Shown piece after piece: positions 12,398 through 59,223 of a stretch of 64,000 bases of DNA; the first letter of the stretch is position 1; each line of letters opens with the position of its first letter. A model generated the notes under the pieces. That model was not told the DNA's origin. It was given only the letters and a program-made list of their open reading frames with translations, and made no database searches. The position numbers and the translations under genes are program-made. The DNA comes from Mycolicibacterium sarraceniae (GTDB lineage Bacteria; Actinomycetota; Actinomycetes; Mycobacteriales; Mycobacteriaceae): contig NZ_AP022595.1 in the NCBI RefSeq assembly GCF_010731875.1, forward strand, positions 3,844,001 through 3,908,000, read 5' to 3'.

Positions 12398-13144
12398 TCA
12401 GGCCAGCGAGGACCAGAAGTCGGTGAGCACCTGAGCGGCGCGTGCGGGATCCTGCAGCATCCACCAGTGCCCGAGACCACCGAGCACCACTGTGCGGGCG
12501 CCGGCCCGGGCCGCGGCGTCTCGCCGCAGTTCGTCGCTGCCGACATAGGTGTCCTCAGTGGCCAGCAGCGATAGCCCCGGCCGGGCCGCGGCATTACCCA
12601 ACGAGCGGCCCGCGTCGGCCATCGCGGGCTGGGTGGCCGAGCGGTACAGCGCCAGGATGGCCCGACCCATCTCCGGGCCCTGGGCGACGGCCAGTTCCGC
12701 GGCGACGCCTTCGGGAATCCCGAGCCCGGCGAGCTGGGTGGCGCGGTCCTGTACTGAACCGCCGATCATCACCTCGACCAGTTCTTCGCCGGCTTCCGGG
12801 GTCTGCCACACCTGCGCCATGTCGTGCCAGACGTAATCGGGGTGCAGGATGCCTAGCACATCGCTGGCCCAGCTGCGTACCAATTCTGGCCGGTGCATCA
12901 CCGCGTTGATGACGTGCCCCCCTCCCCAGTCGTGGCCAACCAGGTCGACGGGAGTGTCGAAACGCTCCAGCTCGGTCTCCAGCCAATCCCGGTAGGCCAG
13001 GTGTGTCATCGGGAAATCCGCAGGCACCGGAGCCCCGAATCCTGGTGGCGATAACCGCACCACATCATCGCGGCCCAGTGCTGCGACCAGCGGGCCCCAG
13101 ATCGCATCGGTCTCCGGATTGCCGTGCACCAGAACCACCGTCAT
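12398..13144 (-). CDS. Alpha/beta hydrolase (epoxide hydrolase/haloalkane dehalogenase type)
   Basis: A 248-residue alpha/beta-hydrolase. VLVHGNPETDAIW near residue 5 supplies the oxyanion loop (HGNP). GHDWGGGH at about residue 80 carries an Asp nucleophile, as in epoxide hydrolases and haloalkane dehalogenases rather than Ser esterases. The catalytic His is likely in GLGHWWML near residue 225. Substrate unknown. The ATG at 13144 starts at the first conserved strand; the frame runs 87 bases further up but would then approach the divergent thiolase-like gene. About 107 bp separate the two start codons. Confidence 0.83.
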   Translation of the reverse strand: MTVVLVHGNPETDAIWGPLVAALGRDDVVRLSPPGFGAPVPADFPMTHLAYRDWLETELERFDTPVDLVGHDWGGGHVINAVMHRPELVRSWASDVLGILHPDYVWHDMAQVWQTPEAGEELVEVMIGGSVQDRATQLAGLGIPEGVAAELAVAQGPEMGRAILALYRSATQPAMADAGRSLGNAAARPGLSLLATEDTYVGSDELRRDAAARAGARTVVLGGLGHWWMLQDPARAAQVLTDFWSSLA

Positions 13145-13251
13145 GGCGACATCCTGACATGGCCGTCGGCACCGACCGTCGGGACCCCGGCGAGCCGATG
13201 CTAGGTTTTGACAGCCGTCAAACACCGCCACGACTAGGGAAGGGATCGGCC

Positions 13252-14715
13252 ATGGATCCTCGGACGCCAGTACTCGTCGGGGCCGGACAGGTCAACCAGC
13301 ACGACGACGCCGATATCGAACCCGTCGACCTGATTGCCGCGGCCGCCCGCGAGGCGGCCGACCCACGGGTGCTGCAAGCCGTCGATGCGATCCGGGTGGT
13401 CAACCTGCTGTCGTGGCACTACCGCGATCCCGGCCTGCTGCTGGGCCAGCGGATCGGTGCGCCCGAGGCGGCCACCCGCTACACCGGGGTCGGCGGTAAT
13501 ACGCCGCAATCGCTGGTGAATCAGGCGTGCCTGGACATCCAGAACGGCCGCGCCGACGTCGTGTTGCTCGCCGGCGGCGAGACCTGGCGGACCCGGATGC
13601 GCCTGCGCGCCAACGGGATCAAACCGGACTGGACCCGCCAGGACGATACGGTGGCGGTGCCCCCGGGCGGCGAGGACGTGCCGATGTCGGGCCCGGCCCA
13701 AGACCGCATCGCCCTGGACCGACCGTCGTTCGTCTATCCGCTCTTTGAGCAGGCACTGCGGATCGCCGACGGTGAGACCGTCGAGGATCACCAGCGCCGG
13801 ATCGCTGACCTGTGGGCGCGGTTCAGCCAGGTGGCAGCGGCTAACCCGCACGCATGGAGCCCTGAGGCGCGCAGCGCCGAGCAGATCGGGCAGCCCAGTG
13901 CGGACAACCGCATGATCAGCTGGCCCTATCCGAAGCTGATGAACTCCAACAACATGGTCAACCAGGCTGCGGTGGTCATCCTGTGCTCGGCGGAGAAAGC
14001 CACTTATCTGCAGATCCCGCGGGATACGTGGGTCTTTCCGTATGCGGGTGCCGACTCGCATGACACCTACGCCGTGGCAGAACGCCACGAACTGCACCGC
14101 TCCCCGGCGATCCGGCTCGGAGCCCACCGCGCCTTGGAACTGGCCGGTGTCGGTGTCGATGACCTCGACCACATCGATATCTATTCCTGCTTTCCGTCAG
14201 CGGTGCAGGTGGCAGCCCGCGAGCTCGGCGTCCCCACCGACGATCCGCAGCGGCCGTTGACGGTCACTGGTGGGCTGACGTTCGCCGGCGGACCGTGGAA
14301 CAACTACGTCATGCACTCGATCGCCACCATGGCCGACCTGCTCCGGGCCAACCCGGCCGCCCGAGGGCTAATCACCGCCAACGGCGGCTACCTCACCAAA
14401 CACAGCTTCGGTGTCTACAGCGCGACTCCACCGCCGGCCGCCTTCCGCTGGGAGGACGTGCAGGAGGCGGTCGACCGCGAGCCCACCTGCCGGGCGCTGG
14501 TCGAATTCGACGGCGAGGGCACGGTGGAGGCCTGGACCACGCCATTCAATCGCGACGGGCAGCCGGAAAAAGCTTTCCTGACGGTGCGAACCAGCGACGA
14601 CTCGCGCGCACTGGCGGTTATCGACGAGCCTGAGGCAGCGGCGGTGACGGTGCGCGAGGACATCGCCGGTGCCGTGGTGCGGGTGCACGCCGACGGCCGG
14701 GCCAGCCTGGCCTGA
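13252..14715 (+). CDS. Thiolase-like acetyl-CoA acetyltransferase family protein
   Basis: A 487-residue thiolase-superfamily protein of the kind often annotated acetyl-CoA acetyltransferase, likely acting in lipid or steroid side-chain degradation. It starts PRTPVLVGAGQVNQ and carries VNQACLDIQNG with a Cys at the position of the thiolase nucleophile. It also has LAGGETWRTR, DIYSCFPSAVQ, and the C-terminal NGGYLTKHSFGVYS, which resembles the SCP2-thiolase His region. An extra ~90-residue C-terminal domain follows. The ATG at 13252 comes after AGGGATCGG. The frame is open to 13003, but that part overlaps the divergent hydrolase and is unconserved. The exact reaction is uncertain. Confidence 0.82.
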   Translation: MDPRTPVLVGAGQVNQHDDADIEPVDLIAAAAREAADPRVLQAVDAIRVVNLLSWHYRDPGLLLGQRIGAPEAATRYTGVGGNTPQSLVNQACLDIQNGRADVVLLAGGETWRTRMRLRANGIKPDWTRQDDTVAVPPGGEDVPMSGPAQDRIALDRPSFVYPLFEQALRIADGETVEDHQRRIADLWARFSQVAAANPHAWSPEARSAEQIGQPSADNRMISWPYPKLMNSNNMVNQAAVVILCSAEKATYLQIPRDTWVFPYAGADSHDTYAVAERHELHRSPAIRLGAHRALELAGVGVDDLDHIDIYSCFPSAVQVAARELGVPTDDPQRPLTVTGGLTFAGGPWNNYVMHSIATMADLLRANPAARGLITANGGYLTKHSFGVYSATPPPAAFRWEDVQEAVDREPTCRALVEFDGEGTVEAWTTPFNRDGQPEKAFLTVRTSDDSRALAVIDEPEAAAVTVREDIAGAVVRVHADGRASLA

Positions 14716-20567: not shown

Positions 20568-20843
20568 ATGGAGGACCCATTCGACCTGCAGCGCTTCGTC
20601 GATGCTTGGCGGCGCGGCAGCATGAGTGCACCCCGCTGCTGGCCGCCATTGAGGGCGCCTCGATCAAGGACCGCCATTGAGGGCGCCTCGATCAAGGAGA
20701 TCTTCCCCTGGCCGGAGAGCCTGAAGGTGCGCTCGTCGATGACACTGTTCGCTCGAGCCGCCACCGACAACGCCGATTTCCTCGCGGTATTGGACCCGTT
20801 CTACAGCGGCCATCAAGACCCCCGCACCCTCGAACTGCTCTAG
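20568..20843 (+). pseudogene. DUF1810 family protein with core deletion and 28-bp duplication
   Basis: The N-terminus (MEDPFDLQRFVDAW) and the C-terminus (KVRSSMTLFARAATDNADF, then LDPFYSGHQDPRTLELL) match DUF1810 proteins, normally ~140-150 residues. Here only 91 codons separate start and stop, and the conserved middle (the HWMWFVFPQ-type region) is gone. A perfect 28-bp tandem duplication occupies part of the gap; it happens to keep the two ends in one frame, so a small product is possible. Its stop overlaps that of the convergent GH13 gene. In M. tuberculosis a DUF1810 gene (Rv1873, from memory) precedes bfrA. Confidence 0.75.
20643..20698. repeat. Perfect 28-bp tandem duplication
   Basis: Two identical, adjacent 28-bp units beginning ccgccattgagggcgcct occupy 20643-20670 and 20671-20698 inside the DUF1810 remnant. 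Because 28 is not a multiple of three, loss of one copy would shift the frame. Confidence 0.95.
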
Positions 20844-29314: not shown

Positions 29315-29812
29315 ATGAGCCGAATCGGAAATTTCGCCGAAGATGACGTCGCCGGTTGGATCGTCAAGTCCCCGGACATCGGAACGGCGATGGCGGGCTT
29401 CAGCGGTGCGGTCTACAGCGAGAAGAACCGCCTGCCGATGCGGGTGCGCGAGCTCGCCCGCGCTGTGATCGCCCACGACAACGAATGCGTCTTGTGCCAG
29501 AACACCCGCGACGCCGACGGACCCGCCGCCGGAGTCGATGAGGAGCTCTACGACCACGCCCTGGAATGGCAGACCTGGCCGGGTTACAGCGACCAGGAGC
29601 GCGTCGCTGCGGAGTTCGCGCACCGGTTCGGCACCGACCACGTGAACCTCAAGTACGACGAGGACTTCTGGGATCGCGCCCACGCCCAGTTCTCCGATGA
29701 GCTGCTCGCCGACCTGACGTTGTCGTGCGCGATGTGGATCGGCATGGGCCGCATGCTGTCCACTCTGGACATCGGGCAGAGCTGCAAGCTGACCCTGCCC
29801 AGCCGCGCCTAG
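29315..29812 (+). CDS. Carboxymuconolactone decarboxylase/AhpD-family protein
   Basis: A 165-residue all-helical protein of the CMD/AhpD superfamily. The motif RVRELARAVIAHDNECVLCQ gives the ECxxC pair that in AhpD-type proteins forms the redox Cys pair, so a peroxidase or thiol-disulfide role is possible. The ATG at 29315 starts MSRIGNFAEDD. A KstR-type palindrome 30 bp upstream suggests the gene belongs to a lipid or sterol regulon (inference). Confidence 0.75.
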   Translation: MSRIGNFAEDDVAGWIVKSPDIGTAMAGFSGAVYSEKNRLPMRVRELARAVIAHDNECVLCQNTRDADGPAAGVDEELYDHALEWQTWPGYSDQERVAAEFAHRFGTDHVNLKYDEDFWDRAHAQFSDELLADLTLSCAMWIGMGRMLSTLDIGQSCKLTLPSRA

Positions 29813-29837: not shown

Positions 29838-30212
29838 GTGGTCGGCACAGTAAGCTGCCATGACCACATCGCCAATGTGCCCCTGGTGGACAACCACCTA
29901 CATGGCTACTGGCTGACGCCCGGTGATCGCCGGCGCTTCGAGAACGGCCTCAACGAGGCCAATATCGAGCCGTTGGCCGACGTCGCGTCGGGTTTCGACA
30001 GCCAGCTCTGCTTCGCGGTGCGAGCGCACTGTGCACCGCTGTTGGGCCTGCCCGAACATGTTGACCCGCATAGCTATTGGGACCGACGCCACGAGATGAC
30101 TGAAGATCAGCTGGCGCGGGTGTTCCTACCGGCCGCGGGTGACGACGCCGACGCATTTCGGCGTGGTCGACTTGATCGGGCGGGAGAACGCCCGATACCG
30201 GTTGTAGGTTGA
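29838..30212 (+). pseudogene. Amidohydrolase remnant (Rv1879-like)
   Basis: The first ~95 codons match a metal-dependent amidohydrolase: VPLVDNHLHGYWLT with the HxH metal motif, RRRFENGLNEAN, FAVRAHCAPLLGLPEHVDP and LARVFLPAAG. Then most of the enzyme is missing. The last codons in another frame read VVDLIGRENARYRL-stop (TAG 30205-30207), like an amidohydrolase C-terminus. A ~380-residue gene has thus shrunk to ~125 codons. In M. tuberculosis, by recollection, an amidohydrolase (Rv1879) lies between glnA3 and cyp140; glnA3 is absent here. Confidence 0.72.
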
Positions 30213-33159: not shown

Positions 33160-33662
33160 TCAGATGTGTTTACTCACAGGGGTGAACAGGCGTCGGGCTG
33201 TCGACCGTCGAGATCGGTGAACATAGGGCGTCAGCTCGTGCCCGAGCGCACACGCCAACCGGTTGACCGCGGATTTCACCGCGTCGTAGAACGCCGACAG
33301 CCGGGAGGCGTGTGCGTTGCACTCGGCGGTGCCGTCCGTCATATCGACCCGCTGTCGATGTCGTGTTCCCAGATGGGGCGATTCCATTCCGGTGGCGGCC
33401 CCTTGAGGATCTCGGCACCCCAGATGTCGTTGACCAGCACATCAATTCGGCCATAGTCGGCCCGGCTTCGGTCGGCGAGCCCGCGCACCTGCGCGGCGTC
33501 TAGATGATCGACTTGGATTGCCACGCCGGTTCCCTCGGGGTCGTCCTCCCAACGGCAGTGGCTGAACGTCTTGACCTGGTCGCCGGTCTCACCGCCGAAC
33601 AGCCGGGCCAGTTCCCTTTGCTCCGTGGCGAGCAGGTGGACGGCGCGATGTGTCATGGCCAC
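33160..33662 (-). pseudogene. Short-chain dehydrogenase remnant
   Basis: Two SDR pieces lie head to tail. The upstream one reads GVAIQVDHLDAAQVRGLADR, then DYGRIDVLVNDIWGAEILKG, and stops after PIWEHDIDSG. The downstream one, in another frame, reads MTDGTAECNAHASRLSAFYD, then AVKSAVNRLACALGHEL, which covers the SDR Tyr-x-x-x-Lys region (YDxxK). The intervening ~30 residues and the nucleotide-binding N-terminus are missing. The first ~40 codons from 33662 (MAMTHRAVHLL...) are not SDR-like and I cannot place them. This cannot encode an active enzyme. Confidence 0.7.
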
Positions 33663-36040: not shown

Positions 36041-36244
36041 GTGGAACCACGGACGGCCACGAACACTGTCTGGATTGTCATCGCCGTGGTCGTGGCGTTG
36101 GTCGTCATCGGCGCACTGGTCTGGGTCGGAGGTAGGCCGAGGAAAACGCCGCCAAGCACCGCGATGTTTCGCCGGGGTGCATTCATCCCTTCTCGGCGAA
36201 ACGTCGGTTTGGGTGCTCGGGGGAGGCTGACGCGCCAAGGCTAA
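36041..36244 (+). CDS. Small single-helix membrane protein (doubtful)
   Basis: A GTG at 36041 opens 67 codons whose first 35 contain one strong transmembrane helix (NTVWIVIAVVVALVVIGALV) followed by WVGGRPRK, a common layout for small mycobacterial membrane proteins. The last third overlaps the 3' end of the convergent cyp140 gene and is low-complexity. This may be a real gene truncated at its 3' end, or a remnant. No function. Confidence 0.35.
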   Translation: MEPRTATNTVWIVIAVVVALVVIGALVWVGGRPRKTPPSTAMFRRGAFIPSRRNVGLGARGRLTRQG

Positions 36245-37514
36245 CCGGTAGTTGGGCCAACCCGCGCAGCACCCGCGTATCGCGCTGACTGCCGAGGCCG
36301 GCCAGCCGGGCCTCGGGGAAGCGCGTGAAGAACTGGCGCAAGCCCACCTCACCCTCGGCTCGCGCCAGCGCCGCTCCCAGACAGAAATGGCGGCCACCCG
36401 AAAAGGCAAGGTGCTTACCGGCATTGGGCCGGCCGATATCGAAGCGGTGGGGATCGTCGAAGACGGCGGGATCACAGTTTGCGGCGGCCAGATAGATCAC
36501 CACCATTTCGCCGGCCTTCACCCGCGTCCCCGCCACCTCGGTGTCGCGCAGGGCCAGCCGTGCCGAAAGCTGCACCGGTGATTCCAGTCGCAAGATTTCC
36601 TCGACCGCATTCGGCCACAGCGACGGATCGGCTACCAGGCGGGCGAGTTGGTCGGGATAGTTCAGCAGCAGCCGAATTCCATTGCCCAGCAGGTTCACTG
36701 TGGTCTCGAACCCGGCGGCGAGCACCAGTCCCGCGACGCCCTGCAGTTCGGCCTCATTCAGATGCGCGCCGTCCTCGGAGGCTGCGATCAGCTGGCTCAT
36801 CAGGTCATCGCCAGGGTGCTGACGCAGATGCTGCAGATGTGCCGACAGCCACTGGTTGAATCCGGAAAGGCCATGCTGCACCCGCTGGTATTGCGGCCAG
36901 GACAGCCCGACGTCCAAGCTCGGAGCCGCGAGCTCACCGAACTCGAGAATGCGCGGCCGGTCGGCATCCGGCACACCGAGAATGTCGCCGATCACCGCGA
37001 CCGGCAGCTGCGAGCAGTACCGCTCGATGATGTCGACCACTCCGGGACCGGCGGCCAGCCCGTCGAGCAGCTCCCCGGCGCTGTCTTCGACTCGATCGCG
37101 CAGCGCGGCCACCGCACGGCTGGTGAAGACCGACGAGACGGTCTTGCGATATCGGGTGTGCTCGGGTGGTTCGACCGCCAGCAGCGACGGTGGGCGCAGC
37201 GGGTGCAGCAGATTGGCGCGGGTGCGCTGTTCCAGCCAGCGCACCGGCGCGGGCAGATTGCCGCCGAGCACGATCACCCGGAAATCCTCGGAGCGCAACA
37301 GCTCGTGAGCCACCGCATGATCGACGGTCATGTGACCGACCCGGGTGCGGATCAGCGGGCCGCGCGGGCGCAGCTCGGTGTAGAAGGCGACCGGATTGGC
37401 GCGCACCCCCGGATCGGCCACCATCCGGGCCTGCGGATCACCGCGTCGCGCCGCAATTGTGGCGACCGTTCGGACCACCCCGTGCATCGCCAGCCAGTGC
37501 AGCCGTTGCTTCAT
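36183..37514 (-). CDS. cyp140: Cytochrome P450 of the CYP140 family
   Basis: A 443-residue soluble P450. The start MKQRLHWLAMHGVVRTVATI matches the N-terminus I recall for M. tuberculosis CYP140A1 (Rv1880c). The I-helix has AAGFETTVNLL (acid/Thr pair), the K-helix EEILRLESP (ExxR), and the haem loop FSGGRHFCLGAALARAE with the Cys ligand. Near-identity of long stretches such as EPPEHTRYRKTVS and FGELAAPSLDVG supports the family. The ATG at 37514 is preferred to one nine bases upstream because it matches the family start. Substrate unknown. It lies tandem with and downstream of cyp124, ~48 bp apart. Confidence 0.92.
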   Translation of the reverse strand: MKQRLHWLAMHGVVRTVATIAARRGDPQARMVADPGVRANPVAFYTELRPRGPLIRTRVGHMTVDHAVAHELLRSEDFRVIVLGGNLPAPVRWLEQRTRANLLHPLRPPSLLAVEPPEHTRYRKTVSSVFTSRAVAALRDRVEDSAGELLDGLAAGPGVVDIIERYCSQLPVAVIGDILGVPDADRPRILEFGELAAPSLDVGLSWPQYQRVQHGLSGFNQWLSAHLQHLRQHPGDDLMSQLIAASEDGAHLNEAELQGVAGLVLAAGFETTVNLLGNGIRLLLNYPDQLARLVADPSLWPNAVEEILRLESPVQLSARLALRDTEVAGTRVKAGEMVVIYLAAANCDPAVFDDPHRFDIGRPNAGKHLAFSGGRHFCLGAALARAEGEVGLRQFFTRFPEARLAGLGSQRDTRVLRGLAQLPVSLGASASPEHPNRRFAEKG

Positions 37515-37562
37515 GCTCACCAACGCTACGAGGGCGGCACTGCCGGCGCCACAACCTCAGGC

Positions 37563-38851
37563 CTAGCCCCAGCTGACCGGTAGCCGCTTGATCCCGTGAA
37601 TGAACGCCGAGAGCAGCATCGCCGGCTCCTCGGTCACCGCGATATCCGGTATGCGGTGATGCAGTTCTTCGAAAACGACGGCGATCTCGCGGCGGGCCAG
37701 ATTGGCGCCGAGGCAGAAGTGCGCCCCGCCGCCGCCGAAGCCGACGTGATGGTTCGGTGTGCGGGTGACATCGAAGAGCCAGGGGTTAGCGAACTTGTCC
37801 TCGTCGCGGTTGGCCGAGGCGTACCACATGGTGACCTTGTCGCCTTCGGCCATCGCGACCCCGGACAACTCGATGTCACGAGTCACAGTGCGGCGCATGT
37901 AGATAACCGGTGATGCCCACCGCACCACTTCCTCGACGGCGGTATCGCTGACCGCGTCGAAACCGTCCCACCAGATGCCACGCTGCTCGGGGTAGCGAGT
38001 CAGCGCCAGGACACCATGGCTGATCGCGTTGCGGGTGGTCTCATTACCGGCGACGGCCAGCAGGATGAAGAACGAGGCAATCTCGGCCGATGTCAGCCGC
38101 TCCCCGTCGACCTCGGCGACCACCAGTGCGGTGGTCAGGTCTTCGCGGGGGTTGGCCCTGCGGTCCTCAGCCAGCGTCGTCGCATAGGCGCCGATATCCA
38201 GTGCGACCTTGAGGAACTCGTCGAAGTCGGTAGTCAGGTCGGGGTCGCCGAAGCCGAGGATGATGTTGGTCCATTGCAAGATCCGGTCGTGATCCGAATC
38301 CGGGATGCCCATCATGTCGCAGATGACCTGCAGGGGAAGCGGTCCGGATAGCTCGGAGACCAGCTCGGCATGGCCGTCGGGGTGGTTCTCGAGCATCGCC
38401 GATACCAACTGCTCGGCGCGGTCGCGTACCGACTGCTCGGTGCGGGCCACCACCTTCGGCGTGAACGCGCTGCGCACGATGTTGCGCAGCCGCGAGTGCC
38501 GCGGGTCGTCCAAGGCGATCATCGACCCGAAGTACTCGGCGACGTCTGGGATTTGATCGGCGATGGTGATGTTCGGATACGAGCTGAAGATTTCCGGGTG
38601 ACGGCTGGCGTAGAAGACGTCGTCGAGCTTCGTCAGTGCCCAGTGCCCAGTGCCCAGTGCCCCTTGCCGTGGGGCACGCCCTCCATCTCGACCTCGTGGA
38701 AGAACTTAATCGGGGCTTCGCGACGCAGCGTGGCGAACGCACCGTCGCGGGCCGCGTCGTCGAGGCCCCAGAACTCGAAGGTGCCCAGATTGATGTCGCC
38801 AAGTGCGATCTCGGGTGGCTGCTGACCGTTGACACGTGTCTCGATACCCAT
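37563..38851 (-). pseudogene. cyp124: Cytochrome P450 CYP124, frameshifted at a 7-bp tandem repeat
   Basis: CYP124 enzymes omega-hydroxylate methyl-branched lipids and cholesterol side chains. The gene is otherwise complete. The N-terminus runs in one frame (INLGTFEFWGLDDAARDGAF, then RREAPIKFFHEVEMEGVPHG) up to GHWALGTGH-stop at 38633. The remainder is open in another frame from HWALTKLDDVFYASRHPEIF on, with the I-helix AGNETTRNAISHG, ExxR and haem loop FGGGGAHFCLGANLARR. The switch occurs exactly at four perfect copies of a 7-bp unit. Relatives need GHWALTK, encoded by two copies; the two extra copies add 14 bp. Two or five copies would restore the frame. It may be a phase-variable gene, a pseudogene, or a sequencing artefact. 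Confidence 0.9.
38635..38662 (-). repeat. Four perfect copies of a 7-bp unit inside cyp124
   Basis: The + strand reads agtgccc four times without interruption (coding strand GGGCACT x4). The unit length is not a multiple of three, so each gain or loss moves the cyp124 frame. Confidence 0.97.
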
Positions 38852-38857
38852 GGAAGA

Positions 38858-39313
38858 TCATTCCTTCTCAACGACTTTCTTCATTCGCTCCAGCGTCGTG
38901 CGCATGTCCCGCCGGTTGCGCCGGCCCCGCAAACATCCGCCGAACAACCAGAACAGCCGCATCGGCGCGGCGTTGGCGAGCCGGAACGACTCTGTCACGT
39001 CGGTGCCGTCACCGCTCGGGTCCAGGCGGTAGTGCCAGTTGTTGAGGGCCTTGTCGCCAGCCAGCACGGCGAACCCGAATTCGCGTCCCGGCTCGCACGC
39101 GGTGACGCGGCAGGTGGTCCAGTACACCGGGCCGATCTCGTTGCGGCGCACATGGCCGCGGAACGTCGCCCCCAGTGCCGGCCCGGTGGTGCCATCGAGC
39201 CATTCGGACTCGAACACCTCCGGCGAGAACTCACCGGTCCTGGTGATGTCGGCGATGAGATTCCAGATCTTGTCGGCCGGTGCGGCCATGTGCACGGTCA
39301 CGGAGCCTTCCAT
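38858..39313 (-). CDS. SRPBCC (polyketide-cyclase-like) family protein
   Basis: A 151-residue START/Bet-v1-fold lipid-pocket protein: EGSVTVHMAAPADKIWNLIA, then DITRTGEFSPEVFESEWLDG and a C-terminal amphipathic helix (RRDMRTTLERMKKVVEKE). Such proteins bind hydrophobic ligands; no enzyme activity is implied. The ATG at 39313 starts at the first strand. It ends 6 bp before cyp124 on the same strand, so both likely share a message, which could link it to the P450's lipid substrate (inference). From memory M. tuberculosis has a similar gene near cyp140 (Rv1883c). Confidence 0.78.
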   Translation of the reverse strand: MEGSVTVHMAAPADKIWNLIADITRTGEFSPEVFESEWLDGTTGPALGATFRGHVRRNEIGPVYWTTCRVTACEPGREFGFAVLAGDKALNNWHYRLDPSGDGTDVTESFRLANAAPMRLFWLFGGCLRGRRNRRDMRTTLERMKKVVEKE

Positions 39314-39322
39314 GGTGTGATC

Positions 39323-40150
39323 CTATGCCGAGGTGACGTGTGGGATCTCCGGCTGCAGGAAGACGTCGTTGAGCGTGACCGTACGCAGGTTGCGGGATCG
39401 GATGATGTCCACCAGCGCGGGGTAGACATGCGTGACCGGCAGATGATTGAGGTGGCCGATGACGATGTTCTGCTGAATGAAGTATTGGTCGGCCATCTTC
39501 ACGATGAAGTCTTCGGTCACCTCCGTGGAATCGGCCAGCGATCCCGCCCACAGGGTCGGGACCCGGTAACCGAGATCGGCGGCGACGGCATCGACATCGT
39601 CATTGTGGCTGCCGTAGGGCGGCCGGAAATACGGGGTGGCGTCGGCACCGAACGTGGTACGCAGGAACTGGTCGTTGCGCCGCAACTGATCAGCGATCTG
39701 ATCCTTGGGCAGTGTGGTCAGATCCGGATGCGACCAGGTGTGGTTGCCGAGCTGAATCTGACCGGAATCCACCAGCGGCCGCAGCAGGGCGGCATTGTCG
39801 CGCCAGGAGTCGTACACGCCGTTGACGAAGAACGTCATCCGGATTCCGGTGTCCTTGGCCAGTTGGGTGTAGAGCCGTACCACCTCGGAGTTGACTCCGT
39901 CATCGACGGTCAGCGCCAACAGATCACCGTTGCCGGGCAGCTTGGTCAACTCACCGCCTCCGGGCAGAGGCACGCGATCGATCGGCGGGGGCGGGGGCAA
40001 CAGCGGGGCCGCGCCGACCGGCGGAGGGGGACCCTTGGGGGCAGCCAGCGGGGGATTGGTCTGCGACATCCCGATCGCGCTGGACGCCCCGACCAAGCTG
40101 GCCGACGTGAGCAATCCGATGACGAACTGGCGCCGGGTCACCTCGGGCAC
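39323..40150 (-). CDS. Exported polysaccharide deacetylase (NodB domain)
   Basis: A 275-residue CE4-type deacetylase. The N-terminus TRRQFVIGLLTSASLVG is a Tat-like signal, followed by a Pro-rich linker (residues ~33-60). The NodB domain has LTVDDG (metal Asp/base), NHTWSHPDLT (metal His pair) and FRPPYGSHNDD. It would remove acetyl groups from peptidoglycan or other wall glycans outside the membrane. A GTG at 40150 places the twin arginines at residues 6-7. It precedes the SRPBCC-cyp124-cyp140 genes on the same strand, 9 bp from the SRPBCC start. Confidence 0.85.
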   Translation of the reverse strand: MPEVTRRQFVIGLLTSASLVGASSAIGMSQTNPPLAAPKGPPPPVGAAPLLPPPPPIDRVPLPGGGELTKLPGNGDLLALTVDDGVNSEVVRLYTQLAKDTGIRMTFFVNGVYDSWRDNAALLRPLVDSGQIQLGNHTWSHPDLTTLPKDQIADQLRRNDQFLRTTFGADATPYFRPPYGSHNDDVDAVAADLGYRVPTLWAGSLADSTEVTEDFIVKMADQYFIQQNIVIGHLNHLPVTHVYPALVDIIRSRNLRTVTLNDVFLQPEIPHVTSA

Positions 40151-40272: not shown

Positions 40273-40575
40273 GTGAGCGACGTGAAGATCCGGTTCGGCC
40301 TCAGGTCGGCACCTCGGTGGCGGTACTGCCCGGCCGCCATCCGGCCCTGGTCGCCAAACAGCTCGCGTCACTGGCCGCTCTCGGCCCGAAGCGGGTGCTG
40401 GGCTGCGCCCCGCGTCGCAGGCGGGATGGGATCTGTTCACCGTGCCAACCGGCCAGCGTGCCGCGGTATTCGATGAAGCACTGGAAGTGTTGTGCCTCTT
40501 GCTAACTGGTGACGAGGTGACCTTCGCGGGCCGGTTCTGTCAGCTCGCCGCGGCATCGCTGGGTATCCGCCCAGC
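40273..40575 (+). pseudogene. LLM-class F420-dependent oxidoreductase remnant
   Basis: Pieces of a luciferase-like oxidoreductase lie in successive frames: MSDVKIRFGL from a GTG at 40273, then QVGTSVAVLPGRHPALVAKQ and LASLAALGPKRVLG, then WDLFTVPTGQRAAVFDEALE, VLCLLLTGDEVTFAGRF and SLGIRP. At least two frame changes occur, the N-terminal third is incomplete, and everything after SLGIRP is lost. The DUF4331 gene begins ~130 bp later. Non-functional. Confidence 0.7.
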
Positions 40576-40704
40576 ACTCCCAACTCGACCGTTTGATCGA
40601 CGGGCTGTTGCCTCGGCAGAATTGATCCGGCACAGTGACCCCTGGTGGGTATTGATGCCCACTGATGCAGCGTCGACAGACGGCCGCGGCGGAGGAGTTG
40701 TGCA

Positions 40705-45690: not shown

Positions 45691-46254
45691 ATGCCCGCCG
45701 CGACCGGCCTTCGCGCCAGACCCGCCCAGCTGCTGATCGCGTCAGCATTACTCGTCAGCCTGGCCTTGGGGCTGGGTTTCGTTGCCCTGCACAGGTTTCG
45801 GGATATGCGTGGCGCAGCGGTCGATCCGGTCGCGTACCCGTTGACCGACGACCAGGCCAAAACGCAGGTCCTTGATCCGGCCCGCGAGATCGCCGGCACC
45901 CTGAAGGGTGTCAGTGCCAGTTATCTGCTGATGTCGTGCGCGAACGCCGACGAACCGCCCTATCAGGGCGCGGTCTACCTCAACTTCGATGTGCCGGGGG
46001 TGCTGGAGACCCCGAAGTACTTCGACTCGATCGCGGCAGCGATGACGGCCAAGGGCTGGACCGCGGCGATGCCGCCAAACCGTCATCCCGGTGGTCGGGC
46101 CTTCAGCCGCAACGGGGTGACTGCCATCTTCTTCCGCACATCCGATCAGGCCGAGCGGGCCACCATGCAGATCTACGGCGAATGCCGCAACACCACCGAC
46201 CACCGACGCGACCCGACTGGGTGGGTGGATGTCACGGCGGCGTTACCCCGCTGA
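45691..46254 (+). CDS. Membrane-anchored conserved protein
   Basis: A 187-residue protein with one N-terminal membrane helix (LLIASALLVSLALGLGFVAL, residues ~14-33) and an extracytoplasmic domain containing a Cys pair (MSCANADEP and YGECRNTT). The domain resembles a family of small mycobacterial envelope proteins; no activity is known. The ATG at 45691 lies 4 bp after the stop of the preceding secreted-protein gene. A DosR-type box for the next gene begins 18 bp after this gene's stop. Confidence 0.7.
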   Translation: MPAATGLRARPAQLLIASALLVSLALGLGFVALHRFRDMRGAAVDPVAYPLTDDQAKTQVLDPAREIAGTLKGVSASYLLMSCANADEPPYQGAVYLNFDVPGVLETPKYFDSIAAAMTAKGWTAAMPPNRHPGGRAFSRNGVTAIFFRTSDQAERATMQIYGECRNTTDHRRDPTGWVDVTAALPR

Positions 46255-49787: not shown

Positions 49788-51029
49788 TTACTTGCCGGCT
49801 CCGGTGTAGTCGACCTGCCAGTGCTTGATGCCGTTGAGCCAACCCGACCGCAGCCGCTCCGGTTTCGCCAGCGGGGCGAGATCCGGCATGTGGTCGGCGA
49901 TCGCGTTGAACATCAGATCGATCGTCATCCTGGCCAGGTTGGCGCCGAGACAGTAGTGCGCGCCGGTGCCACCAAAGCCCACATGGGGGTTCGGGTTGCG
50001 GAGGATGTTGAAGCTGAACGGATCCTCGAAGACCTCGTCGTCGAAGTTGGCCGAGCGGTAGGACATCACCACTCGCTGCCCCTTCTTGATCGGGACACCC
50101 GAGAGCTCGACGTCTTCCAGGGCCGTCCGCTGGAATGACGTCACCGGGGTGGCCCACCGCACGATCTCGTCGACCGCGGTTATCGGGCGCTGCGCTTTGT
50201 ACAGCTCCCACTGGTCGGGGAAGTCCGCGAACGCCGTCATGCCATGCGTGATCGAGTTACGGGTGGTCTCGTTGCCGGCCACCGCCAACAGAATGACGAA
50301 GAAGCCGAACTCGTCATCGGAGAGTTTGTGCCCGTCGACGTCGGCCTGTACCAGCTTGGTCACCAAGTCGTCGCCGGGATTGGCGGTCCTGTCGGCGGCC
50401 ATGGCCATGCCGTACATGATCAGCTCGCCGGCCGCGCCCTGCGGATCGTTGCGGGCGAACTCGGGGTCGGCTTCGCCGACCATCTGATTGGACCAGTCGA
50501 ACAGTTTCTTGCGCTCGTCCTGGGGCACACCCATGAGGTCGGCGATAGCCTGCAGGGGCAGCTCGCAGGAGACCTGTTCGACGAAGTCGCCGGAGCCTTC
50601 TGCCGCTGCGGCCTTGGCGATCGCCTGGGCACGCTCCCGCAGATTCTCACGCAGCGTTTCGACGGCCCGCGGCGTGAACGCCCGCGAGACGATCTGGCGT
50701 AGATGGGTGTGCCGCGGCGCATCCATGTTCAGCAGGATGAACTGACCGGTGTCCTTGTGCGACACAGCCGCATTATCGGGGTAGCGCGGCAGCGCGGTGT
50801 TCTCCAGGCTGGAGAACACGTCGCTGCGCCGGGAGACCTCCTTGACGTCTTTGTGCTTGCTGACGACCCAGTAGCCCTCGTCATCGAACCCGCCGACATT
50901 GCGCGGTTGCTCGTTCCACCAGATCGGGGCGACCCGGCGCAGCTCGGCGAGTTCCTCGACCGGCAGCCGTTCGTTGTTCAGATCAGGATCAGTGAAGTCG
51001 AAACCAGGGGAAAGGTTCGGACTCGGCAT
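49788..51029 (-). CDS. Cytochrome P450 of the CYP125 family
   Basis: A 413-residue P450 strikingly similar to CYP125 of M. tuberculosis, the sterol C26/C27 hydroxylase. Shared stretches include PSPNLSPGFDFTDPDLNNER, LPVEELAELR, LNMDAPRHTHLRQIVSRAFT, AVAGNETTRNSITHG (I-helix), EIVRWATPVTSFQRTA (ExxR region), NPHVGFGGTGAHYCLGANLA (haem Cys) and the end SGWLNGIKHWQVDYTG. I start at the ATG 51029 because GGAGG stands 11 nt upstream; the ATG at 51047 overlaps that site. A KstR-type palindrome upstream supports control by cholesterol. It may be a CYP125 paralogue, since no cholesterol cluster surrounds it. Confidence 0.9.
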   Translation of the reverse strand: MPSPNLSPGFDFTDPDLNNERLPVEELAELRRVAPIWWNEQPRNVGGFDDEGYWVVSKHKDVKEVSRRSDVFSSLENTALPRYPDNAAVSHKDTGQFILLNMDAPRHTHLRQIVSRAFTPRAVETLRENLRERAQAIAKAAAAEGSGDFVEQVSCELPLQAIADLMGVPQDERKKLFDWSNQMVGEADPEFARNDPQGAAGELIMYGMAMAADRTANPGDDLVTKLVQADVDGHKLSDDEFGFFVILLAVAGNETTRNSITHGMTAFADFPDQWELYKAQRPITAVDEIVRWATPVTSFQRTALEDVELSGVPIKKGQRVVMSYRSANFDDEVFEDPFSFNILRNPNPHVGFGGTGAHYCLGANLARMTIDLMFNAIADHMPDLAPLAKPERLRSGWLNGIKHWQVDYTGAGK

Positions 51030-51126
51030 AGTAAAGCGCACCTCCATAGGACGTGATCCAGCGCCCGGTGATCCATGCTTACACCACGCGCGGAAGCCTC
51101 GGGCCGGCTTGACGGAAACTCGTAAC

Positions 51127-58372: not shown

Positions 58373-58430
58373 GAGTTCTCCTGACGCTCGGGGGGTCGGT
58401 GGCATCAGTATGCGCATTGAGGCGCGAACC

Positions 58431-58444
58431 TGGAACAGGTTCTA
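58431..58444. promoter_or_regulatory. KstR-type palindrome in divergent promoter region
   Basis: tggaacaggttcta fits TNNAACNNGTTNNA at all fixed positions. It sits between the DapB-like gene (58 bp away) and the SDR gene (35 bp away), so it can control both. Confidence 0.65.
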
Positions 58445-58479
58445 CCTCTGGGACGGCATTATCGGTAGCCTGACGCCCC

Positions 58480-59223
58480 ATGGGACGCGTAGACGACAAA
58501 GTGGCCATCATCACCGGCGGCGCACAGGGGATGGGAGCCGCTGACGCGCGGATGCTTGTCGCCGAGGGTGCCAAGGTTGTGATCGGGGACATCCTCGACG
58601 ACAAGGGCAAAGAGCTGGCCGACGAGCTGGGCGACGCCGCGCGCTACGTGCACCTCGACGTGACCGAAGCCGATCAGTGGGCAGCCGCCGTCGACACCGC
58701 GATCTCCGAATTCGGCAAGGTCAACGTGCTGGTGAACAACGCCGGCATCGTCCAGGTGGCACCGCTGAAATCGCTGGACGTGGAGCGCTGGAAGAGGGTT
58801 CTCGACGTGAACCTGACCGGCGCGCTGCTTGGTATCCAAGCGGTGCTGCCGTCGATGAAGGAGTCCGGCGGCGGTTCGATCATCAACGTGTCGTCGATCG
58901 AGGGCATGCGCGGTGCCTCCTGGGTGCACAGCTATGTCGCTTCCAAGTGGGGCCTGCGCGGGCTGACGAAATCCGCCGCCCTCGAGCTGGCGCCGGACAA
59001 TATCCGGGTCAACTCGGTGCACCCGGGCTTCATCCGCACCCCGATGACCAAGCACCTACCCGAGGACATGGTCAGCGCCCCGCTGGGCCGCCCCGGCAAG
59101 CCGGAGGAAGTGGCCACCTTTATCGTGTTCCTAGCCAGCGACGAGTCGTCGTTCTCCACCGGTTCGGAGTATGTGGTCGACGGCGGCCTGATTACGGACG
59201 TTCCGCACCGCAAGATGCCCTAG
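58480..59223 (+). CDS. Hydroxysteroid-dehydrogenase-type SDR (FabG3-like)
   Basis: A 247-residue SDR very similar to the 3-alpha/20-beta-hydroxysteroid dehydrogenase group (M. tuberculosis FabG3, Rv2002). It shows TGGAQGMGAADARMLVAEGA, VIGDILDDKG, RYVHLDVTEADQWAAAVDTA, VNNAGIVQVAPL, NVSSIEGMRGASWVHSYVAS (catalytic Ser, Tyr and nearby Lys) and VNSVHPGFIRTPMTKHLPED. The ATG at 58480 begins MGRVDDKVAIITGG. A KstR-type palindrome 35 bp upstream strengthens the steroid assignment. Confidence 0.87.
   Translation: MGRVDDKVAIITGGAQGMGAADARMLVAEGAKVVIGDILDDKGKELADELGDAARYVHLDVTEADQWAAAVDTAISEFGKVNVLVNNAGIVQVAPLKSLDVERWKRVLDVNLTGALLGIQAVLPSMKESGGGSIINVSSIEGMRGASWVHSYVASKWGLRGLTKSAALELAPDNIRVNSVHPGFIRTPMTKHLPEDMVSAPLGRPGKPEEVATFIVFLASDESSFSTGSEYVVDGGLITDVPHRKMP

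What the first reader, a model, noticed from the sequence alone, without database searches (positions are those of the whole stretch)
38635..38662. cyp124 is switched out of frame by the copy number of a 7-bp tandem repeat
Seen: four perfect copies of GGGCACT (coding strand) sit between the conserved KGHWAL and the conserved TKLDDVFYASRH. With four copies the N-terminal frame ends in TGA at 38633; the rest of the P450 is open and intact in the other frame. Family knowledge: CYP124 has GHWALTK here, which two copies encode. Inference: two, five or eight copies give a full enzyme, three or four do not, so slipped-strand mispairing could turn a branched-lipid/sterol hydroxylase on and off. No other lesion is evident in the gene, unlike the neighbouring pseudogenes.
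Basis: partly seen in the sequence, partly recalled or inferred. Interest (0 to 1): 0.85.

Follow-up and report, generated by a model that had tools for sequence, protein, structure and literature searches.

The report
Frameshifted cyp124 gene, probably decaying
A lipid- and sterol-oxidising enzyme gene in an environmental mycobacterium has been knocked out of frame by extra copies of a seven-letter repeat, and because it also seems to have lost its own promoter in a shrinking genome region, it looks more like a freshly broken gene than an on/off switch.

Summary
Four perfect copies of GGGCACT (coding strand; 38634-38662) split cyp124: the N-terminal frame stops after 72 codons, the C-terminal frame stays open. 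Both pieces, searched apart, match CYP124 best. Relatives carry the shorter, in-frame form (78 of 79 readable loci open across the site); the window has a net +14 bp.

The on/off-switch reading is not excluded but poorly supported. "No other lesion" is wrong: a deletion of about 2.35 kb brought the upstream gene's stop codon to 6 bp from the cyp124 ATG and removed a TANNNT element, found 7-8 nt before the ATG in 17 of 18 near relatives, that looks like a leaderless -10 promoter. The genome is 4.83 Mb (18 closest: 5.4-7.3 Mb), and this region is 47.7 kb against 68.5 kb in G004 (probably M. crocinum), with gene remnants. Among units of 5-40 bp it is the only array with three or more perfect copies and a unit not divisible by 3 in 384 kb sampled. 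dN/dS suggests a recent break. No conspecific sequence was found, so copy-number variation is untested.

Best reading: recent slippage-made pseudogene (0.72). Phase variation: about 0.12.

The parts
38634..38662 (-). Heptamer array, 4 perfect copies of GGGCACT (coding strand) plus one base; net +14 bp against relatives
   Evidence: relatives
38633..38851 (-). cyp124 N-terminal open frame, 72 codons, ends in the TGA at the end of the array
   Evidence: residues 1-63 match only CYP124 chains among solved structures
37563..38522 (-). cyp124 C-terminal open frame from its first in-frame ATG (319 codons; the frame itself is open from just below 38706), heme-binding region included
38852..38857 (-). 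Six-base gap between the SRPBCC stop codon and the cyp124 ATG: junction of a ~2.35-kb deletion that removed the conserved TANNNT element
38858..39313 (-). SRPBCC-like protein gene (151 codons), now directly upstream of cyp124 (fold name recalled; no NCBIfam match)
39323..40150 (-). Polysaccharide deacetylase-like gene (NCBIfam matches all below their cut-offs), upstream in the same run of genes
36183..37523 (-). Intact P450 gene 39 bp downstream of cyp124, same order as in near relatives
49797..51089 (-). Intact CYP125 homologue (steroid C26-monooxygenase), a possible functional backup

Best explanation
A recently inactivated gene (pseudogene). Shown: the cyp124 reading frame is broken by a net 14-bp gain in a heptamer array. 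Shown: among the loci compared, only this genome has lost about 2.35 kb upstream, including a conserved TANNNT element just before the ATG. Shown: on this branch the coding sequence evolved under about the same constraint as in its sister. Inferred: a synonymous GCA codon in the GHWAL motif made two exact adjacent heptamers, and replication slippage then added two copies, in one or two steps. Inferred: this was tolerated because the region is losing genes and CYP125, which overlaps CYP124 in sterol side-chain oxidation, is kept. The genome has NucS and no MutS match; NucS does not correct indels, so such a gain would stand.
For: Frame break. Relatives intact at the site: 78 of 79 loci with sequence there; the exception, L053, has unrelated DNA at the 5' end. 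No array of three or more near-copies at the motif in the 89 of 113 loci whose motif could be parsed. 330 of 396 genus genomes, this one included, have a strong match to the C-terminal piece. Upstream deletion: SRPBCC-to-cyp124 gap 6 bp here, 30 bp or more in the 36 relatives where it could be measured, 2353 bp in the sisters L011 and L012 (tree). TANNNT: 6-8 nt before the start codon in 38 of 76 loci against a mean of 2.0 per 5-nt window further upstream, and 17 of 18 near relatives; absent in the window. Recent: branch dN/dS of the C-terminal piece 0.11, sister branch 0.11. Shrinking region: 47.7 kb against 68.5 kb in G004 between the same anchors, with remnants of genes that carry Pfam domains in G004. 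NucS present, MutS_V not found; NucS does not correct indels (PMC8228993, passages). CYP125 intact.
Against: No other break is visible inside the coding sequence and constraint still looks normal, which a young 'off' phase would also show. The deletion may not have silenced the gene: the SRPBCC end carries AGAAGGA 10 nt before the cyp124 ATG, so read-through and coupled translation are possible. The promoter role of TANNNT is inferred; half of the loci lack it at that spot, including 15 of 24 MAG loci with SRPBCC close upstream. The branch value 0.11 is above the mean among relatives (0.07), but so is the sister's. One genome cannot show whether the state is fixed.
Confidence: 0.72

Rival explanations
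1. Phase variation: slipped-strand mispairing at the heptamer array turns CYP124 on and off reversibly in the population.
For: A perfect 4-copy array whose unit is not a multiple of 3 sits inside an otherwise well-preserved gene. Heptamer frame switching is real elsewhere: neuO of E. coli K1 (PMC13001214, passages). Copy-number variation of longer promoter repeats is reported in M. tuberculosis (PMC12817950, abstract and passages). Indels escape NucS repair.
Against: No second isolate found, so no variation seen. The array is short (4 copies; 3-53 in 64 neuO genomes, 20 the commonest). No second array with a unit not divisible by 3 and three or more copies in 384 kb of this genome. No expanded array at this site in relatives: 0 of 89 parsed loci of 113 tried; the exact three-copy pattern occurs in one other genome of 396, not in cyp124. 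The probable promoter is lost.
Confidence: 0.12
2. Assembly, sequencing or culture artefact: the extra copies are not in the natural population.
For: One assembly only; its reads are not available here. Reference errors and repeat changes consistent with in vitro evolution are reported for an M. tuberculosis strain (PMC12817950, abstract).
Against: The array is 29 bp, shorter than the reads usual for closed genomes (recalled), and the gain is two whole heptamers, not a homopolymer slip. The upstream deletion is a separate, larger change.
Confidence: 0.12
3. The two open frames are still expressed as a working product by programmed frameshifting or by restart inside the gene.
For: The two frames overlap by 70 nt.
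Against: No canonical X XXY YYZ slippery site in the N-terminal frame; longest homopolymer in its last 90 nt is 4; no ATG/GTG/TTG in the C-terminal frame before 38522, where a restart would lack about 105 residues of the P450 fold.
Confidence: 0.03

Closest known systems
neuO of E. coli K1 (heptanucleotide phase-variable acetyltransferase; PMC13001214, passages read)
   Same: A 7-bp tandem repeat inside a coding sequence; copy number modulo 3 sets the frame; strand slippage.
   Different: neuO repeats lie in the 5' region of the gene, number 3-53 across 64 genomes and vary within one strain; here 4 copies sit in a conserved motif at codon 64 and no variation is known.
Promoter tandem-repeat copy-number variation in M. 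tuberculosis (dop, lpdA, cysG; PMC12817950, abstract and passages)
   Same: Tandem-repeat copy-number change in a mycobacterium, proposed as phase variation.
   Different: Those repeats lie in promoters and are longer (54-57 bp for cysG and dop in the passages seen); this is a 7-bp unit in a coding sequence.
Slippage-made frameshift pseudogenes in genomes under reduction (kind recalled, no paper read)
   Same: Short tandem gain, frame lost, neighbouring genes deleted or degraded, an overlapping enzyme kept.
   Different: No clear difference found; one more example.
CYP124 (methyl-branched lipid omega-hydroxylase; PDB 2WM4, 6CVC, 8GDI)
   Same: Both pieces match CYP124 chains best.
   Different: Not one open frame here.

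Membership tests
CYP124 | Best match to CYP124 among solved P450s, well above CYP125/CYP142 | tested here: met
   C-terminal piece 552 bits to CYP124A1, next family 344 (CYP125MRCA), CYP142 193; N-terminal piece matches only CYP124 chains
CYP124 | One continuous reading frame of about 425 codons | tested here: not met
   frames of 72 and 380 codons
Phase-variable (contingency) locus | Tandem repeat whose copy number changes the reading frame | tested here: met
Phase-variable (contingency) locus | Copy number differs between or within isolates | not testable with these tools
   no second isolate and no reads; the window's piece is the only member of its cluster
Phase-variable (contingency) locus | Repeat expanded at the same site in relatives | tested here: not met
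   0 of 89 parsed loci (113 tried) have three or more near-copies; 1 of 79 has two exact copies
Phase-variable (contingency) locus | Gene otherwise intact, including its promoter | tested here: not met
   upstream deletion to 6 bp from the ATG, TANNNT absent; promoter role inferred, read-through possible
Pseudogene | Orthologous frame open in relatives, broken here | tested here: met
Pseudogene | Relaxed constraint after inactivation | tested here: inconclusive
   branch dN/dS 0.11, same as the sister: inactivation too recent to tell
Programmed frameshift | Slippery site at the frame overlap | tested here: not met
   (canonical X XXY YYZ heptamers only)

The most novel reading that the evidence does not exclude
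A coding-sequence heptamer array reversibly switches a sterol/branched-lipid hydroxylase, and possibly with it the downstream P450 of the same run of genes, in an environmental mycobacterium: a frame-based contingency locus with a unit longer than a homopolymer, in a lineage whose mismatch repair does not correct indels.
Probability: 0.12. Interest if true: 0.55.

Novelty: new member of a known kind. Interest (0 to 1): 0.22.

Why it matters
If it is a pseudogene, it is a clear case of how codon choice in a conserved motif (Gly-His-Trp-Ala-Leu) can create a short direct repeat that later breaks the gene, in a group whose mismatch repair ignores indels. If it were a switch, it would be a frame-based heptamer switch of a catabolic enzyme in a mycobacterium. 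The one search made for that combination (cytochrome P450, phase variation, tandem repeat, frameshift, mycobacteri) found no paper with all five terms; that library is incomplete.

Tried and rejected
A second 7-bp repeat at 46192-46207 looked at first like another slippage frameshift; alignment showed two separate adjacent genes and no heptamer insertion, so it was dropped. The three-copy heptamer in G248 is not in cyp124: tblastn of both cyp124 pieces against L119 gives no match (one search had failed to find the array because it searched the wrong strand). The broken cyp124 of G080 is a different lesion a few codons upstream of the motif, with no array. The search with the N-terminal frame gave 11 short proteins; none shows the array's readout. 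P0128 ends inside the motif and P0129 and P0130 change frame a few codons before it, cause unknown; the others run past the motif or end before it. Since that search only admits proteins of about 40-126 residues, breaks near this place are favoured by its design. L053 looked frameshifted but has unrelated DNA at its 5' end. Programmed frameshifting was tested and rejected. Heptamer counts were one base out of register; one search corrects them. One search read loci on one strand only; (32 of 35 parsed) and supersede it. Some ORFs picked in G004 are spurious or chimeric frames, so no pseudogene rate is claimed.

Full report
What is there. The window lies at 3,844,001-3,908,000 of a single-contig genome of 4,828,255 bp. 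The best-matching relatives of the gene are Mycolicibacterium/Mycobacterium species near rhodesiae, sphagni and crocinum. On the minus strand cyp124 starts at 38851, runs after codon 63 into four perfect copies of GGGCACT and stops at a TGA after 72 codons. The rest of the P450 is open in another frame down to 37563. The C-terminal piece matches CYP124A1 with 552 bits against 344 for the next family, CYP125MRCA. The N-terminal piece matches only CYP124 chains.

Is it more than chance? Yes. Three or more tandem copies of this heptamer occur at this one place in the genome. Perfect arrays of unit 5-40 with at least three copies were counted: 3 in the 64-kb window and 7 in 320 kb of samples of the same genome; of these ten only this one has a unit not divisible by 3. 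In 80 kb of G004 there was 1, unit divisible by 3. In 525 kb of relatives' loci there were 3, one of them with a 14-bp unit. Homopolymers and units under 5 bp were not counted.

Relatives. Of 80 loci from public genome records, 79 reach the site (L074 is cut). 78 are open across it with the shorter form; the other, L053, has unrelated DNA at the 5' end. In six loci saw a stop within 109 codons upstream of the C-terminal piece; read from the sequences, each lies two to four codons before the start codon. The GHWAL motif makes two similar heptamers in most species: 15 of 79 agree at 6 of 7 bases, 1 of 79 at 7 of 7. The exact doublet is therefore unusual and would favour slippage; that step is inferred. 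Of 113 loci tried, the motif could be parsed in 89, and none has three or more near-copies. Across 396 genus genomes, this one included, 330 have a strong match. Among the rows that call listed (it cut the rest), only this genome and G080 have frames under 420 codons.

A second lesion. In the sisters L011 and L012 the SRPBCC gene and cyp124 are 2353 bp apart, with other open frames between in L012. The tree groups the window with these two at 93/86, inside a 14-row group at 99/96. In the window the gap is 6 bp. It is 1217-2581 bp in the 12 near relatives where it could be measured and 30-426 bp in 24 more distant MAG loci; for some the end of SRPBCC was extrapolated from a partial alignment. 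So the window's gap is the smallest of the 37, and within its own group it is best read as a deletion. Of 76 loci with a start codon, 38 have TANNNT ending 6-8 nt before it and none ending 0-5 or 9-19 nt before it; further upstream the mean is 2.0 per 5-nt window. Among near relatives it is 17 of 18, L018 being the exception; among the MAG loci with SRPBCC close upstream it is only 9 of 24. TANNNT is the common -10 motif of M. tuberculosis promoters, and about a quarter of genes with a primary start site there are leaderless (PMC3898074, passages). So in this group cyp124 was probably leaderless, and that promoter is gone here. Read-through from the upstream genes remains possible, since AGAAGGA lies 10 nt before the ATG.

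Age. Nei-Gojobori estimates with two outgroups (L012, L015) give dN/dS 0.11 on the window branch for the C-terminal piece, equal to the sister L011; the mean of pairs among relatives is 0.07. For the intact downstream P450 the window branch has 0.11-0.12 and the sister 0.05-0.06. The short N-terminal piece is too noisy to use (0.12-0.48). No clear relaxation is seen, so the break is recent.

Region. Between the same anchors the window has 47.7 kb and G004 68.5 kb. G004's contig length (5,965,857) is the one listed for M. crocinum. The 18 genomes with the closest cyp124 (90-93%) have 5.4-7.3 Mb against 4.83 Mb here. I scanned ten G004 genes chosen because they looked damaged or missing in the window; 8 of 10 carry a Pfam domain. 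Among them: a short-chain dehydrogenase whose window copy has one stop (58387-59220), a luciferase-like gene in two frames (40296-40585), a short-chain dehydrogenase remnant (33223-33545), a FkbM methyltransferase remnant (29315-29677), an amidohydrolase remnant (29847-30140), and a glutamine synthetase with no match. This is not a rate. CYP125 is intact. CYP124, CYP125 and CYP142 overlap in sterol side-chain oxidation in M. tuberculosis, and the table there lists CYP124A1 as N in every screen shown (PMC6469627, passages).

Mechanism. NucS is present and no MutS_V match was found in this genome. NucS does not correct short indels (PMC8228993, passages). A slippage gain would stand uncorrected. 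The same process could in principle run back, so reversal is not excluded.

Verdict. The sequence observation is right and the arithmetic of the frame is right. A switch needs variable copy number, which cannot be tested here. The features that could be tested (repeat expanded in relatives, promoter kept, other such arrays in the genome) were not met. A recent pseudogene in a shrinking region is the best reading. Of the literature searches, one for a P450 under repeat-based phase variation in mycobacteria found no paper with all five terms. A wider one found 22 papers, of which I saw the listing of 20 and the abstract and passages of one, PMC12817950.

Noticed in passing
window 20643-20698: A perfect 28-bp tandem duplication (two copies) in a stretch between two genes matched in G004; unit not a multiple of 3.
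   Followed up: partly
window 38852-38870: The deletion junction leaves AGAAGGA in the 3' end of the SRPBCC gene 10 nt before the cyp124 ATG; sisters have AGAACGA there, so a Shine-Dalgarno-like site may have arisen with the new arrangement.
   Followed up: partly
L140 (G080): An independent broken cyp124: the frame is lost a few codons upstream of the same motif, without a repeat array.
   Followed up: yes
P0128, P0129, P0130 (metagenome proteins): Short cyp124 N-terminal proteins that end in the motif or change frame a few codons before it; with G080 and the window this hints at a fragile spot, but the search favours such lengths by design.
   Followed up: no
L119 (G248), 1500-1526: Three perfect tandem copies of the same heptamer plus most of a fourth, outside cyp124, in another species of the genus; open frames of up to 290 codons cross it but were not identified.
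   Followed up: partly
window 12404-14097: A homologue of a 570-codon alpha/beta-hydrolase-domain protein of G004 lies in two frames meeting at 13240; a frameshift here or a fused frame in G004.
   Followed up: no
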